The notes beneath the pieces are model-generated. The model made no database searches, was not told the DNA's origin, and saw only the letters and a list, made by a program, of their open reading frames with translations. A stretch of 64,000 nucleotides of DNA, taken from the NCBI GenBank assembly GCA_033819885.1, contig JAQYUZ010000031.1, positions 150,806 through 214,805 of the forward strand, read 5' to 3'. The stretch comes from Microbotryomycetes sp. JL201. Lineage: Eukaryota > Basidiomycota > Microbotryomycetes. Shown here in pieces: positions 20,171 through 27,583 of this stretch (positions are counted from its first letter, which is position 1; each line of letters starts with the position of its first letter). The translations under genes were made by a program, and so were the position numbers.

Positions 20171-23100
20171 ATGGACTACCTCGATGGGTGCGTGCCAGGC
20201 AAGCGCGACCAAATTTGGGCTCGCTAATCACAGTCTGCTGGCGTCTAGTGCGCTGCACCAGAGCATCTTGACGGCATTGGCGAGCAACTTGGCCTCGACG
20301 TCCGAGCACGACGACCTGGCCTTGTTGACGGATACGTTCAGCACAGTAGAGCCTTCGACGAACAAGCAAGTCAATGGCGTGCTCGACAGGCTCACACAGC
20401 CCGCGTCTGCGCTAAACGGCACCCGTGGCTTGACCAGTGTCGTCAGTCACCGTCACACACGTCCAAAATGGCCATGCACTAATATGTCATGCACTTGTAG
20501 ACTGTCCCTCAAGTTGAAGGAATGATCTCGGTGGCCCAATTTGCCCAAAAGTCGACCGCATCGACCGAGATTGTCGATCAAGTCGTTCGCTTGGTCCGCT
20601 CGAGCCCGCTGTTTGAGATTGAGCCGGCGCTTGGACTCGCAGGCAAGTGCACAGGACAAAAAGCAAGTAAGCTTCGCACGCAGGCTGACGCCAGACTCCC
20701 ATACGTTTGCAGCCGCGCAAGGATTCACGCTCTCTGACCAACTCGCGTTCGAACTGACGCTCGCGGTACTGAGTTTGGCTCAGTCGGGCGCAGTGCAGCG
20801 CCGAACCGCCCTCGAGCACATTTCCGAGTATCAGCACGACATCTTGCAACAGATTGAATCGTCAGAAGGTGAGCGCACAACCCTTGACGGCAAAACTTCG
20901 TTTCGAGTCCTAATTTCATCCACCTCGCAATGCGCACCCCCTCACAGGGCATCGCATTATCGGAAACTTGCTGCCTGCACTGAACGGTGTACGTCGCGCA
21001 ATCGCGGCCGCGCCTTTCGTATGGACGAAAGATGACCCCTCACCAGCGCCACCCCGACCATCCGGTGAAGCGCTCGGCAATGCTGGCACGGCCACGGCAG
21101 ACGAGTGGGACACGACGACTGAATCGGGACGTATCGCCTTGGCCACTTTGGCCCAGTACGAGACTTCGCAAAAGGGCTTGTCCTCGGGCTTGATTGTCTG
21201 GTGCGACCTCGAAGCGCAACGTGCTTACTGGACGACCGTCGTGTCCAGCGACCACCCTGCCACAAACAAGTGGCAATTTGTCAACCACACGCAGGCGATG
21301 CAGATCAAGGCCGGTGATGGCGCCCTCACGTCTCGCGAATGCGCACTTGGCGTGTGGCAACATACCTTGCTCGAGCTCGAGAAAGCAGACAGCGAGACAC
21401 CATTCGATCCTTATTCGTTCGACGTGCTCCTGTCGAGCTTGGTGAGCCAGAACGACACATGTTTGCGCTCCTGCTTTCGCTGACTCGCGCGCTCGGTAGC
21501 ATCTTGGCACCGTGTCTACGATCGCCTACGGTCAAGCATCAGCCGAGTTGACCAAGATCTTGGAAGACTTGCTCGTCCATCCGCCTTCAGTATCTGACGA
21601 GATCGTTCAGATCGGTGCCGTCGAGTGTCTGCAGGCGCTCACGTTTGCGTGAGTGGACCGAGTCCGTTTTAGCAACGAGGGCGAGAAAACTGATTCTAGC
21701 TTCGCAACAAAGCTTCCCAGCGTCCTTGACGAGGTCAATTGCCATAATTCGCAGGTTTATTCTCTCACCATCTCCCATTTTTGAGCAGCTGGCCGGCACA
21801 GGACCCAGCCTCGCTTCCGTCGCCGCTGCCAAGTGCTACGCCGCACTTATCGACTTGACCGGCGATCCAGCTCAGCGCGAGTCGGCTATCCAGTCTCTTT
21901 TGAACCACTTCACAGCGAGCGAGCGAGACTCGACCTCTCGAGGCGCCAACAGAAAGGACAGTGACGCAAGGTCGATCAGGTCCGTCACCGGCGGCCTGTC
22001 GGAATCTCAGCGAGCTACAGTCTCCGCAAACGTTGCGCACGCTGTTGGACGATTAGTTGTGCACTTCCAGGATCAAAATGTCAGTCCTTGGTCTGCAGTC
22101 CTGCTCAGATATGCCCAGCTAAAGCTCTTTCCGATCGTGTCAGCTCGCCCGTTTCGCCGCACCGATGCTGATCCAACGCATGTCTGGCACCAACCCTCAA
22201 GTCGACGGCGCGCTCATGTACCAACTCTGCGACATTGGCATGTTTGTCGACAAGTCCACCTTCATGGACATTGTCAAGGCGATTTACGACGTCAGCAAGC
22301 GACTCGAACCAGAAGACATTATGACGAGCGCCGTGTTGACCGCTCACAGCCGCTTGGCGTCGACTGCTGCACAGCGCAAGGACGTCCATCTGGAGTACCT
22401 GACCGAGACCCTCGGCTTGTTTGTTGCAAAGGGTGCACACGAAACGACAAGCCGCACAAAGTCTGCCGTGAGTGAAATTGAGGCTCTGACAGACATTGCA
22501 TCGCAACGTCCAGCTGATTTTCGTGCTGTGTGAGCAGAAGACTGAAAGCTTGCTCGAGCTCATCCCGTCAATTGACATGTTTCTGACGCAAGCCGAGTTT
22601 GATCCTCGTCGTCGAGACCTGCCATCTCCCTTGTTGGCGCTGTGGCGCAATTTCTGGATTTTGTGTCGCCTCGCTGGATTCTTGTCGACACCTGTACGCA
22701 TTTACGAGTGGCAACGTCAAGCTTTGCAGAGAATCGCTGTGCGCAGTCCTGCATTGTTACGCGGGGCCGGCAACGACTTTGTCGAGACCGAGTTGCAGTA
22801 CAATGCAATTCTCAAGTCGGAGATGCATGCACTGGTGAGTTTTGAGAGCTTTCGTCCCGCCGAGAGACATGTCTGACGGTTTCTGAACGCTCGCCCCAGT
22901 CACCCGACACAGTTCGCACGGAACTCGCATCTGCCCTGCCCTCGCAGGCCACCAACGCACGCTCTCTACCAAGCAATCAAGTTGTGTTTCTCGCGACTGT
23001 GCTCGGTCTAGAATCCCTTCGTGCCGAAGCGGGTCGTCCATCAGCCGTGTTTTCATACTTTCACAACGAGGGCGTCAACAGTCACACATCGATGTACGAC

Positions 23101-26100
23101 ATGCTAAGCTCGATCGCCGAACAAGTAAACTCTCGCTTCATGGGGCACTTGTCAGACAGAGTCGTGTCTCATTCGATGGATGAGGGCGTGTATCCCGAAA
23201 TCCGAGAGATCATCATCGAGTGCGCGCACCAGTATGCCAAGAATAGGACGGTCGCGACAAGATATCTGAACGACTTGTTCTCGAGCTTCCCGTCATTGTT
23301 GTGCAACTCACAGGTCGTCACGACTCTGCTCGAGCTGTTGACGTTGCTTCGGCGTGCTTGCTTGTCCGAATATACGGACGAGGTAGGGCGGCAGCGTCAG
23401 ACATGCAGATTATCTCGCGTTGACATTGATGTGCTCTCGCAGTACACACCCACGTTCAACTACCACTCTGAGCGTGGCAAGTTTTCAATTACTTTGTCGG
23501 ACGACTACACGGCCCGTAATCGCATTCTCACCGAAATGCACAGGTTCACAAAAGCTTGGTTGAAGACTGGTATCACGCGTGCCCCACTCGAGATGCGAGG
23601 ATTGTTGCAAGACTACGTCAAGGATCCAATCGAAGCAGAGTTTCATTCGGCCGCGTTCGCCGATGACGAGATGGGCAAGTCGGTCGCTTTGGACATTTTA
23701 CGCATGTCTACGACGAATGCGAAAGAAGGCAAGCTCTTTTCCAACGTGACGGCGATATCGGCCAGCTGACCATATTGTTTCCCAAAAGCCGCATTGCCCG
23801 CTTGGGGAGAATGGAAGGCCGACGACTCTGCCAACTTTGTTCGCAGCTTTAGTGCCAAAAACTATTTCGGTGGTCAACTCGCACGCACGGCTGAAGTCGA
23901 TCAGACGAGTTTGTTGGCAGAGCTCGAGGATTTGAGCGAACAAGTGGACAAGCACAAGCTCAAAATGTCTTTGCCGGAGATGCGCAAGCTGTTTTACCGT
24001 GCTGCAGGACATCTTGTCAATGCGCCAGAAGTGAGCGACGTTTGTGCAAATCTGCGATTCCGACTGACGCGTGCGCCTCGATCCAGCCCGATGTCGAAAT
24101 CCTCGATTTGCTCGTTTCTCTGCCGGTTCGCATCTTTACAGAGGGTGCCATGTCGCTCGCTGTTGAGGTTTGGACATGGATCGCCGAGGACAGGCCCGAA
24201 CTCGAAGCGAGACTGATGATTGAAGCTGTGCAAGCTTGGACTGGTACGATCCACGCTCGTCAAGGCTTGTTCTCGGACACTATCAAGTGAGCATACAATC
24301 TTATGCGCTCGATGGTACACTCATCGTCAGCGGATCTGGTGACAGCCGAGCGAATCCCCTCAATCAAGAAACGCAATTCACTCCGACGGACAAAGACCGC
24401 ATGACGAAAGAGTACTTGCTCGCAAATCGCCTCTTGCAACCTCATGGCACGTTCTTGTCGTTCTTGTCAAGCAGGTACCAGGCGTTCAGGTACCGATCTA
24501 TTGATCTGGTTCATGCGTGCTTGTTGCTCGTTATTCGATCGGTTCGAGCTCACAAGCTGTGGAGGTGGGCAAACCATGGTCACTTGGCTTGGTCGACGCG
24601 CTCATTACCTTTACCTATCAGCACTCACCAGCTGACGCGCGAGTTGCGCATGAAGCTCGTGTCGTTTGGATTCTGCGTCCTGCAAGGCAGTCGCTTAGAG
24701 ACTGCAGTCGAGTTCAATCTCCGCAACAAGCTGTACGACGCAGCTTTGAGCTGGTTCGCTACGCCCCCAGGGTTTGTTCAAATGAGCTGCGGTATTTGCG
24801 ATTGGATTTTCTTGCTGATGAACGTTTTTTGTCGCTCAGATGGTCTTATGGTTCTAACCGAGTTCAACTGAAAGCTGATCTAGTCGCGATGGAAGAACTC
24901 GCATCAACTGTCAAATCTGACGTACCCACGTACGATTTGATGCTTACGAGCACGCTCGACAGAACAGGTCAGCTACCAGGTCGAGTCGCCCTCAAGAGCG
25001 CGACAGCGTTGCACACTCAGCGTGTGCAGTTGCTCGGGGCTTTATTGGAGAATGAAATGGACCGGCTCAAACTGTGGTTGAACCCGCTGATGGATGCAAA
25101 GCACGGACCCGTGCCAAGCAAAGTGGCTCCTTCCGAGGTAAGAATTTGCCCCGCGGTACAAGCACAGAATCGGCCGACTCATGTCTCGTGGATACGCAGT
25201 CGACGTGGAAGCAACACGTGCGCGTCGCATGGCACCAGTGGCCGGACGTGGCAGTTCAAATCCCTGCTCGCATCAAATCGTCTGGTGTCGCCACAGAGGT
25301 GACTCGACTCGTCAAAAGCCATCCGGAGCGGGTGCAACATAACCCTGATGCGTTATCGTTCTTTGTCGGTGACGGTATAACCAGCGATGTCAAGCCTCAC
25401 TTGCGTGTGCGTATCTCAGCGTCTTCTCAGCAACACTTGTTGACGATGCGCTGTTGTCTTCAGCATCTGTTGTACTGGGCGCCTGTTCCGGTCATCATGG
25501 CTCTGAGGTTCTTGTTTCCAAAGTTCAAAGGGGATCCAGTCCTGCTGCAATACGCTTTGCGCACGCTCGAGCACCATCCGGTCGATTTGACATTCTTTTA
25601 CATTCCTCAAGTCGTTCAGGCTCTGCGAACGGACGAGCTTGGTAAGCACGCGCCTGGCGATTGTGCCTTGTGCATCAATCGAGAGCGGAGGGTATTCATG
25701 CGGATACTTTGGCGCAGGCTACGCCGAGCGGTTCATCTTTGAGACGTCGCAAATTTCACAATTGTTCTGTCATCAAATCATCTGGAACATGAAAGCTAAC
25801 GCGTATCGTGGCGACGACGGAGAAGAGGTAAGCTCTTGCGTTGAGGCCATATGCCACAGCTCGACCGACTGATTCTTCCGTGTCATCATTCGCAAATCCC
25901 AAGCCCGATCCGATGAAACCCACGCTCGATCGCATGGTTGACATGATCGTCGGCGCTTTGTCTGGCGACGCAAAAGACTTTTATCAGCGAGAATTTGCCT
26001 TCTTTGACGAGGTGACGTCCATTTCGGCGAAACTGAAACCGTACATCAAGGCGCCTAAACCAGAGAAGAAGGTCTGTTGCGTTTTATCTCTGGTGCACCA

Positions 26101-27583
26101 TTCGAGCGATCGCGCTGACGTCAGGTCTTTGTCTTTTCTTTGTTTACGATTCGAAAAGGCCAAGATTGACGAAGAAATGGCAAAGATTAAAGTTGATCCA
26201 GGTGTCTACTTGCCCAGTAACCCTGACGGCGTTGTCGTCGATATTAACCGGACGTCAGGTCGTCCGTTACAGTCTCATGCCAAAGTAGGCAGCCTGTTTG
26301 TTTTTCGAGCTTTGCGATGACGGGCATTGACGTTTGTGCGATCCTAGGCTCCATTCATGGCAACGTTCAAAGTTCGGCGCGAACACAAGAAGGGCGCCGA
26401 TCCGGCCGACCTTGAAGCTCAGGACGCTCTTCTCGAGCACAATGAGCAAAAGCAAGCGATTGATGGCGAAGGTGCAGATAAGCCAGGAGATGCGCAACAA
26501 GAGCCCGGAACCAAGACGTACGACACGTGGCAAAGTGCGATTTTCAAAGTCGGAGACGATTGTCGTCAAGACGTCTTGGCTTTGCAGATTATCGCCATGC
26601 ACAAAAACATATTCACGAGCTTGGGACTGGACTTGTTGGTGACGCCCTACAAGGTCACAGCGACCGGACCTGGAGTGAGCTTCGTTGTCAACATGTCATG
26701 GTCGCTCTGCTGACCAAACTACGAACGTTGCGACGCAGTGCGGAGTTATCGATGTCGTCCCGGACGCCACGTCTCGTGACGAGATGGGTCGAGCAAAGAT
26801 CAATGATCTCAAATCGTTCTTCCAAATCAAGTATGGTTCGCCAGACTCTATCGAGTTTCAACGGGCCCGCACCAACTTTGTCCAGTCAATGGCGGCCTAC
26901 TCTTTGTTGTGCTACTTGGTACAGATCAAGGATCGTCACAATGGAAATATCATGATCGACGGCAGAGGCTGCATCACGCACATTGGTAAGCTGTCGCCGT
27001 CCTAGAATTACAGAAACTGCAGAATGCTGAGCAGCGAGCGGTCTCTATATCAGATTTTGGCTTCTTGTTTGATATTGATAAGTCTGAGGCTGCTGATGAT
27101 GAACCTGCACGTCGACGAGACTGACAATGTTGATCGACGTCGTGATTACGTCCAGGAGGAGTCAAGTTTGAGCCATCCTCGTTCAAGCTGACTCACGAGA
27201 TGATCGTCTTGATGGGAGGCAAAGACTCTGTCGGGTTCAAGCACTTTCAAGAACTTACGATAAAGTCGTTCCTCGCTGCTCGACCGTTCGCTCAAGCGGT
27301 CGTTGAAACGTCTGCTCAGATGGCTGGAGCAGGGTTCCCTAGTTACAAGGATGAGCATACGATGGACAGGTTGTTGGACAGGTTCAAACCAGATCTGAGT
27401 GAGGTAGAGGCTGCAGAGTACATGAAGGGTATCATCAATAATGCGTTGGAGAACATGAGGTCAATCGTTTATGACGAGTTCCAAAGGATGACGAACGGTG
27501 AGCTGGGCGTCTCGCCTTCTGTGCTGCGGCCGAACAAGGTTTCTGATACTTTCATGTGTGCAGGTATTCCATACGTTCGTTAG
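20171..27583 (+). CDS. STT4: Phosphatidylinositol 4-kinase, Stt4/PI4K-III-alpha type
   Basis: Makes PI4P at the plasma membrane with Efr3/Ypp1 partners. About 2,000 residues from more than twenty exons. Exon 1 is MDYLDG at 20171, spliced to [17 protein letters not shown] long alpha-solenoid follows ([16 protein letters not shown] and LLPALNG serve as landmarks), then the PIK helical domain ([22 protein letters not shown] to [19 protein letters not shown]), a linker with [13 protein letters not shown], and the kinase domain: [16 protein letters not shown], catalytic loop [26 protein letters not shown] activation segment and [13 protein letters not shown] near the end. All GT-AG joins I checked keep frame, but the gene also needs one GC-AG intron (23729-23788) and one AT-AC intron (27078-27149). 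Stop TAG at 27581. Identification is certain. Confidence 0.97.
23729..23788 (+). other. STT4: GC-AG intron in STT4
   Basis: The donor reads GAAG|GCAAGC and the acceptor CAAAAG|CCGC. Removing 60 nt joins NAKE to [13 protein letters not shown] in frame. The nearest GT donor (GTGACG at about 23743) leaves the wrong phase. AG|GCAAGY is the known consensus of GC-AG introns, which compensate the T-to-C change with a strong match elsewhere. Confidence 0.7.
27078..27149 (+). other. STT4: AT-AC intron in STT4 kinase activation loop
   Basis: The 72-nt intron begins ATAAGT and ends GATTAC, with ACTGAC as a candidate branch site about 28 nt upstream of the end. Its removal joins GAT ATT G to GT CCA GGA GGA, giving [16 protein letters not shown], the conserved PI4K activation segment. 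Reading through hits an in-frame TGA. The only GT nearby (AAGTCT) with any AG acceptor gives a frameshift. The ends are unambiguous because no equivalent shift exists. ATAAGT resembles a U2-type donor with G1 changed to A, not the U12 ATATCC type. Confidence 0.8.

What the first reader, a model, noticed from the sequence alone, without database searches (positions are those of the whole stretch)
27078..27149. AT-AC intron in the STT4 kinase activation loop
Seen: exon ...GATATTG, then ATAAGT...GATTAC, then GTCCAGGAGGAGTC; only this excision gives [16 protein letters not shown] in frame, and reading through hits a TGA. Known: U2-type AT-AC introns pair G1-to-A at the donor with G-to-C at the acceptor and are very rare; U12 AT-AC introns start ATATCC. 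Inference: the donor ATAAGT is U2-like, so this would be a rare U2-type AT-AC intron in a fungus, inside an essential lipid kinase. A possible genomic mis-call cannot be excluded, but two independent errors would be needed.
Basis: partly seen in the sequence, partly recalled or inferred. Interest (0 to 1): 0.75.

Follow-up and report, generated by a model that had tools for sequence, protein, structure and literature searches.

The report
Ancient AT-AC intron in fungal kinase
An essential fungal enzyme gene carries a very rare kind of intron (starting AT and ending AC instead of GT and AG), and traces of the same odd intron appear at the same spot in other fungi of its phylum, so it looks real and old, and it has led some published gene models to leave out the enzyme's active site.

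Summary
In STT4 (PI4-kinase) of Microbotryomycetes sp. JL201, one excision only restores [16 protein letters not shown]: 27078-27149, ATAAGT...GATTAC, 72 nt. Apart from its terminal A and C it looks like an ordinary U2-type intron: donor +3 to +6 scores like its neighbours, and CTGAC lies 25 nt from the end. It does not match U12 signals; no U11, U12, U4atac or U6atac gene was found, but those negatives are weak. What is new is depth. Of 348 homologue rows fetched, 83 read on past the donor at the same codon as DID[K/E/R], which means an A at +1; no DFGFLF row reads DIG[K/E/R], as a GT donor would. Of 32 long read-throughs, 24 reach the next exon, and all 24 carry the junction residue that an AC end predicts and an AG end does not. 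Named or nearest-named relatives are Agaricomycetes, Tremellomycetes and Microbotryomycetes, so the intron probably dates to an early basidiomycete. The deposited JL201 model drops the DFG motif to keep GT-AG; two other deposited models lose DFG at the same place. A base-calling error is effectively excluded. No RNA and no relative's DNA was available. Verdict: a real U2-type AT-AC intron; new member of a known kind.

The parts
20171..27583 (+). STT4 (PI4KIII-alpha) gene of Microbotryomycetes sp. JL201, start codon to stop; with 23 GT-AG introns, one GC-AG intron and the AT-AC intron removed it encodes 1917 aa without an internal stop
   Evidence: exact spliced mapping of the deposited protein, corrected CDS, match to human PI4KA chains
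26986..27053 (+). upstream intron, ordinary GT-AG, 68 nt, phase 1 (GTAAGC...TATCAG)
27054..27077 (+). 24-nt micro-exon that carries the DFG motif (second and third base of the Asp codon to first base of a Gly codon: DFGFLFDI)
27078..27149 (+). AT-AC intron, U2-like, 72 nt, phase 1 (ATAAGT...GATTAC)
   Evidence: only excision that restores the family sequence; same site in homologues
27078..27083 (+). donor ATAAGT: GTAAGT with the first base changed; +3 to +6 score 4.47 against -0.91 to 5.07 for 23 neighbours in the same gene
27121..27125 (+). candidate branch site CTGAC, A at 27124, 25 nt before the last intron base; the in-frame TGA 27122-27124 lies inside it
   Evidence: sequence
27144..27149 (+). 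acceptor GATTAC (YAC in place of YAG)
   Evidence: same acceptor type in 24 of 24 homologue read-throughs that reach the next exon
27150..27497 (+). downstream exon, GTCCAGGAGGAGTC... (GPGGVKFE...); the deposited model wrongly removes its first 6 bases by using the AG at 27154-27155

Best explanation
27078-27149 is a real spliceosomal intron with AT-AC termini that the major (U2-type) spliceosome removes. U1 and U6 read a normal donor (RAG-T at +3 to +6), U2 reads CTGAC, and the only departures, A in place of G at +1 and C in place of G at the last position, compensate each other because the first and last intron bases meet in the second step. The change is old: read-through traces show the same pair at the same codon in Agaricomycetes, in sequences nearest to Tremellomycetes, and in Microbotryomycetes. 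It probably stays because going back to GT-AG needs two changes at once, and each single change would break an essential kinase. SHOWN here: the unique excision, the U2-like signals, the shared A-starting donor and C-ending acceptor. INFERRED: that it is spliced, that U2 snRNAs do it, common descent of the copies, and the reason for its persistence.
For: Unique excision; donor +3 to +6 score 4.47, 14th of 24, with G at +5 as in 23 of 23 neighbours; CTGAC 25 nt from the end. Donor in relatives: 83 of 348 fetched rows read DFGFLFDID followed by K (50), E (31) or R (2), that is A-Y-AAR, A-Y-GAR or A-Y with an Arg codon; the next residue, where present, begins with T unambiguously in 49, possibly (S or L) in 24, not in 2, and 8 rows end there. 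In DFGFLF rows none reads DIG[K/E/R]. Acceptor in relatives: of 32 read-throughs with 18 or more residues after DID, 24 reach exon 3; junction residue R in 3 of 3 (frame A), T in 9 of 9 (frame B), Y or H in 12 of 12 (frame C), as YAC predicts; YAG would give G, R, and Q/K/E/stop. Internal control with the same method: the upstream intron reads G at its donor junction in 61 of 61 (GT) and D at its acceptor junction in 61 of 61 (AG). Depth: named read-throughs are Rhodosporidiobolus azoricus (Microbotryomycetes), Tulasnella sp. 403 and Amylostereum chailletii (Agaricomycetes); 10 of 83 are nearest to Cryptococcus or Kwoniella, for example 93-98% over 76-82 aa for P0142, P0241, P0242, P0243 and P0246, but only 80-81% for P0341. 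Models of JL201, NB124-2 and Phenoliferia lose DFG at this very place. Published: AT-AC is the best terminal pair after GT-AG in a mutated yeast intron, as stated in PMC6726248 (passages).
Against: No RNA was seen for any species. Protein letters cannot tell AT from AC at +1/+2 (Asp is GAT or GAC); T at +2 is shown in JL201 only. In frame A an AA end would also give R before some Gly codons, and in frame C a final T is also allowed. One search used a query that itself contained DIDKS, so the 79 rows that came from it are biased towards D; the two searches with a DIG query gave 4 read-throughs, all D. The deposited JL201 model does not use this intron. Of the 120 rows of one search, 115 are contiguous here, and nothing tells whether those species lack the intron or were annotated correctly. 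One row, P0325 (unnamed, DFGFCFDIGMH), reads as a GT donor at this codon. Most read-through rows are unnamed and were placed by nearest named protein only.
Confidence: 0.92

Rival explanations
1. It is a U12-type AT-AC intron removed by a minor spliceosome that this lineage still has.
For: AT-AC termini are typical of U12 introns. Two published hints of minor-spliceosome RNAs in basidiomycetes: minor snRNA genes in Cutaneotrichosporon oleaginosum (PMC7072748, passages) and one U4atac in the rust Phakopsora pachyrhizi, judged a likely remnant there (PMC2846911, section 11). A 6-of-9 match to the U12 branch consensus lies near the 3' end.
Against: The donor matches RTATCCTT at 4 of 8 positions only and has G at +5. 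A U12 donor would read DIDI or DIGI; none of the 348 rows does. No U12, U11, U4atac or U6atac match in the JL201 assembly, while U2, U6 and U4 were found over their cut-offs and U1 below it; but the minor-snRNA searches had no control genome that rang. A survey of over 3000 genomes found no convincing minor introns in Basidiomycota (PMC10639083, passages).
Confidence: 0.03
2. The sequence is wrong or the gene is damaged in this strain: an ordinary GT-AG intron with two base errors or two private mutations.
For: The deposited JL201 model did not use the intron.
Against: The same donor and acceptor types appear at the same codon in dozens of other sequences. STT4 appears at one place only in the assembly, and its corrected CDS is open over 1917 codons and 88% identical to the sister strain NB124-2.
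Confidence: 0.01
3. The deposited GT-AG model is right: 26986-27155 is one intron and the protein lacks [10 protein letters not shown], or a GT-AG form without the DFG is made as a regulated isoform.
For: P0001 maps exactly with this 170-nt GT-AG intron; P0002 and P0029 also lack DFG here. Both introns flanking the micro-exon are phase 1.
Against: It removes the metal-binding Asp of a kinase; 170 nt is the longest of the 24 introns of that model, the next being 106. The three models lose DFG in three different ways, as expected of gene finders that cannot use AT-AC. The read-through ORFs keep the DFG exon.
Confidence: 0.03
4. The AT-AC pair is kept because it protects the DFG micro-exon: the upstream GT donor cannot be joined to an AC acceptor, so skipping is blocked.
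For: In JL201 a GT-AG intron lies just upstream and the exon has 24 nt; 61 of 83 read-through rows also show the upstream GT-AG intron.
Against: 22 of 83 rows have no upstream intron read in and still have the AT donor (three of these are deposited gene models in which an upstream intron may simply have been spliced out by the predictor). So protection from skipping is not needed for the pair to persist.
Confidence: 0.15

Closest known systems
U2-type (U2-dependent) AT-AC introns of animal sodium-channel genes, e.g. human SCN4A intron 21
   Same: AT-AC ends with a U2-like donor bearing G at +5, removed by the major spliceosome (as described in PMC2831892, passages and section 16)
   Different: Here in a fungal lipid-kinase gene, 72 nt long, in a phylum reported to lack minor introns; splicing not yet shown by experiment
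AT-AC splicing in budding yeast (protointron in SUT635, alternative use in RPL30, mutated reporter introns)
   Same: A fungal major spliceosome uses AT-AC without any minor spliceosome (PMC6726248, passages)
   Different: There no standard intron normally uses AT-AC (same paper); here it appears to be the only way to make the kinase, and shared across the phylum
'Other AT-AC' introns from ESTs, e.g. 2 in the rust Phakopsora pachyrhizi; at least 42 judged real in C. elegans
   Same: AT-AC introns in lineages thought to lack U12 splicing (PMC2846911, section 11; PMC3033335, passages)
   Different: Genes and conservation were not given in the passages seen; I cannot tell whether STT4 is among them
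U12-type AT-AC introns
   Same: Terminal dinucleotides only
   Different: Donor and branch site do not fit

Membership tests
U2-type AT-AC intron | AT at the start and AC at the end, junctions fixed by the protein | tested here: met
   single excision that restores the family sequence
U2-type AT-AC intron | U2-like donor with G at +5 | tested here: met
   ATAAGT, +3 to +6 score 4.47 among 23 neighbours; AAR/GAR or an Arg codon at +3 to +5 in 83 of 83 read-through rows
U2-type AT-AC intron | U2-type branch site at usual distance | tested here: met
   CTGAC, A 25 nt from the end; the same YTRAY scan found a candidate in 17 of 23 neighbours
U2-type AT-AC intron | removed by the major spliceosome in an experiment | not testable with these tools
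   no RNA or splicing assay available
U12-type intron | donor RTATCCTT | tested here: not met
   4 of 8 positions; no DIDI or DIGI among 348 rows
U12-type intron | branch site TTCCTTRAY near the 3' end | tested here: not met
   best match 6 of 9
U12-type intron | minor snRNAs U11, U12, U4atac, U6atac in the genome | tested here: inconclusive
   none found, but no control genome rang; U2, U6, U4 found over cut-off, U1 below it
STT4 / PI4K type III alpha | full-length match to known members including the DFG loop | tested here: met
   human PI4KA chains E 9e-55 over the whole 210-aa query; 120 listed homologues, most named ones called PI4-kinase or hypothetical protein

The most novel reading that the evidence does not exclude
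The STT4 intron is a fossil of the minor spliceosome: it was a U12-type AT-AC intron in the fungal ancestor, was taken over by the U2 spliceosome when Basidiomycota lost U12 splicing, and has been trapped with AT-AC ends ever since because a single end mutation is lethal. It would then be one of the oldest trapped AT-AC introns known and a natural record of how a lineage survives the loss of a spliceosome. The pathway was proposed for sodium-channel introns (PMC2831892, section 16); nothing here excludes it for STT4, and nothing here proves it: the one GT-type row at the same codon (P0325) would rather favour a GT-AG ancestor, if it is the same intron.
Probability: 0.25. Interest if true: 0.8.

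Novelty: new member of a known kind. Interest (0 to 1): 0.6.

Why it matters
If right, a major spliceosome has handled the same AT-AC intron since early in basidiomycete history, inside the catalytic loop of an essential kinase. That makes the 'trapped intron' idea directly testable by comparing many species at one codon, gives a ready set of natural AT-AC substrates in culturable fungi, and shows a recurrent annotation fault: three deposited STT4 models lack the DFG motif and three more carry foreign residues there.

Tried and rejected
Rejected: GT-AG and GC-AG alternatives around 27054-27203 (12 keep an open frame, none restores the family sequence; the only GT donor among them, GTCGAC at 27111, lies 13 nt before the CTGAC adenine). 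Rejected: U12 type. Rejected: duplicated or allelic STT4 as the source of the oddity (the search with the kinase piece gave 6 matches, two of them the STT4 exons in the window and four weaker ones on other contigs).

Led nowhere: DNA of relatives. The genome tool says that no relatives are held for this genome. A degenerate pattern for the DFG exon plus an ATRAG donor gave 0 matches in viral contigs and 0 in genome contigs, as expected for collections of viruses, bacteria and archaea. A genome-wide count of other AT-AC introns in JL201 was not made. A first gene-finding script needed too strict a branch site and ended the gene early; a relaxed one followed. No structure prediction was run.

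Paper searches (10 of 10 used). The searches for JL201, for AT-AC with Rhodosporidium, for AT-AC with phosphatidylinositol 4-kinase, and for PI4KA with U12-type introns gave no paper. So I found no report of this intron in that library; subscription journals and supplements were not searched. PMC8283771 gave only reference-list passages and is not relied on.

Full report
What was claimed.

Where it is. The window lies on a 214,805-base contig of an unnamed 17.15-Mb assembly. The best protein match is the deposited PI4-kinase of Microbotryomycetes sp. JL201, on a contig of the same length (P0001), which maps letter for letter to the window. JL201 is a basidiomycete of Pucciniomycotina, Microbotryomycetes.

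The observation. All letters and coordinates are as stated. Among excisions of at least 15 nt with any termini in the stretch scanned, one only gives [19 protein letters not shown]: 27078-27149. The intron follows a 24-nt micro-exon (27054-27077) that carries the DFG motif and is preceded by an ordinary GT-AG intron (26986-27053). The spliced kinase piece matches human PI4KA chains over its whole length, with a one-residue insertion after the loop's PGG. With the AT-AC intron, one GC-AG intron and 23 GT-AG introns removed, the CDS 20171-27583 is open over 1917 codons and 88% identical to the sister strain's protein.

Signals. Against 23 GT-AG introns of the same gene the donor's +3 to +6 score is 4.47 (range -0.91 to 5.07, 14th of 24), with G at +5 as in 23 of 23. 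CTGAC has its A 25 nt before the end. The U12 donor consensus is matched at 4 of 8 positions and the U12 branch consensus at 6 of 9 at best. The assembly holds U2 (two matches), U6 and U4 over their cut-offs and a U1 match below its cut-off. No U6atac, U12, U11 or U4atac match was found, with the warning that no control genome rang for those families. In print, a survey of over 3000 genomes found no convincing minor introns in Basidiomycota (PMC10639083, passages), but minor snRNA genes were reported in Cutaneotrichosporon oleaginosum (PMC7072748, passages) and one U4atac in Phakopsora (PMC2846911, section 11).

How gene models fare. P0001 avoids the intron by one 170-nt GT-AG intron, 26986-27155, and so reads ...THIGGVKFEP..., without DFG. 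The sister strain NB124-2 (P0002) reads THIGKSNFLRGVKFEP and Phenoliferia psychrophenolica (P0029) THIDSSANVIVDLQGVKFEP: both also lose DFGF at this place. Three further deposited models keep DFGFLFDI and then run into foreign residues: Rhodosporidiobolus azoricus (DIDES...), Tulasnella sp. 403 (DIDKC...), Amylostereum chailletii (DIDES...). Of the 120 rows listed in one search (of 2738 hits), 115 are contiguous here.

Donor in relatives. A phase-1 intron that starts ATAAGT after ...GATATTG reads D-I-D-K when not spliced; a GT donor would read D-I-G. Of 348 rows from three searches (120 listed rows each; the third added 108 new ones), 83 read DFGFLFDID then K (50), E (31) or R (2); 4 come from the first two searches, whose query had DIG, and 79 from the third, whose query had DIDKS. 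In DFGFLF rows none reads DIG[K/E/R]; one row with DFGFCFDIGMH (P0325) reads as a GT donor. A D-to-G difference costs only a few bits (my estimate), while the third list runs from 106 down to 80 bits, so the bias alone should not hide such rows. No row reads DIDI or DIGI, as U12 donors would. Protein letters leave +2 as T or C.

Acceptor in relatives. Of 32 read-throughs with at least 18 residues after DID, 24 reach the next exon in one of three frames: residue at the junction R 3 of 3, T 9 of 9, Y or H 12 of 12. YAC predicts exactly these; YAG predicts G, R, and Q, K, E or stop. The search pattern accepted any residue at the junction. In P0142, P0251 and P0304 the loose pattern also hit elsewhere, and I took the hit that continues into exon 3. 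Eight gave no call: three deposited models (P0027, P0071, P0155) and five ORFs (P0250, P0282, P0284, P0290, P0320). P0142 is the clearest: 226 aa from genomic contigs...[39 protein letters not shown]..., a stop-free stretch of 66 nt between the two exons.

Internal control. In 61 of the 83 rows the upstream intron is read through as well: junction residues G at its donor in 61 of 61 and D at its acceptor in 61 of 61, which is GT-AG. The method therefore reads a canonical intron as canonical. In the other 22 rows no upstream intron is read in (three of them are gene models).

Depth. By nearest named protein the read-through rows spread over Agaricomycetes and Tremellomycetes (10 rows nearest to Cryptococcus or Kwoniella) besides the named R. 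azoricus, Tulasnella and Amylostereum. With JL201 at DNA level this spans Pucciniomycotina and Agaricomycotina, so the simplest reading is one origin before their split (inference; not tested with a DNA tree, and most rows have no name).

Mechanism. The first and last bases of an intron interact in the second step of splicing, and AT-AC is the most efficient pair after GT-AG in a mutated yeast intron, as PMC6726248 states (passages, citing Parker and Siliciano 1993, which I did not see). AT-AC introns taken over by the U2 spliceosome may be trapped because a switch needs two changes at once (PMC2831892, section 16). That fits an intron in an essential gene. A protective role for the micro-exon is possible but not needed, since rows without the upstream intron keep the AT donor.

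Standing. U2-type AT-AC introns are a known kind. AT-AC makes up 0.019% of annotated fungal introns (PMC7072748, passages); AT-AC splicing is known in yeast, and 2 'other AT-AC' introns were listed for Phakopsora. What I did not find in ten searches of the held library is this intron or its depth.

Noticed in passing
window 23729-23788 (+): A second non-GT intron in STT4: GC-AG, 60 nt, GCAAGC...AAAAG with CTGAC. Its removal gives [15 protein letters not shown] as in the sister strain; the deposited JL201 model uses 23746-23817 instead.
   Followed up: yes
L008 1501-1683 (G000:C63:52479-52661): The U6 snRNA gene spans 183 nt against a 105-nt model, apparently because an mRNA-type intron (GTAAGATTAG...CCCATTAG) sits right after ACAGAGAA. 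Introns in U6 of other yeasts are known (recalled).
   Followed up: partly
proteins P0253, P0257, P0285, P0301, P0309, P0341: In several unnamed basidiomycete ORFs the AT-AC intron seems to be followed by an exon of only 8 nt (GNCCNGGN) and then a GT donor, judged from the read-through residues.
   Followed up: partly
P0325 (unnamed, 79 aa): Reads DFGFCFDIGMHC: an apparent GT donor at the same codon in a non-basidiomycete-like STT4, perhaps the GT-AG counterpart.
   Followed up: no
L009 979-1114 (-) and 1501-1691 (+): U4 and U2 snRNA genes lie divergently about 390 bases apart.
   Followed up: no
P0002, P0029, P0027, P0071, P0155: Five deposited STT4 models besides JL201's are distorted at the DFG loop, which suggests a systematic annotation fault.
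   Followed up: yes
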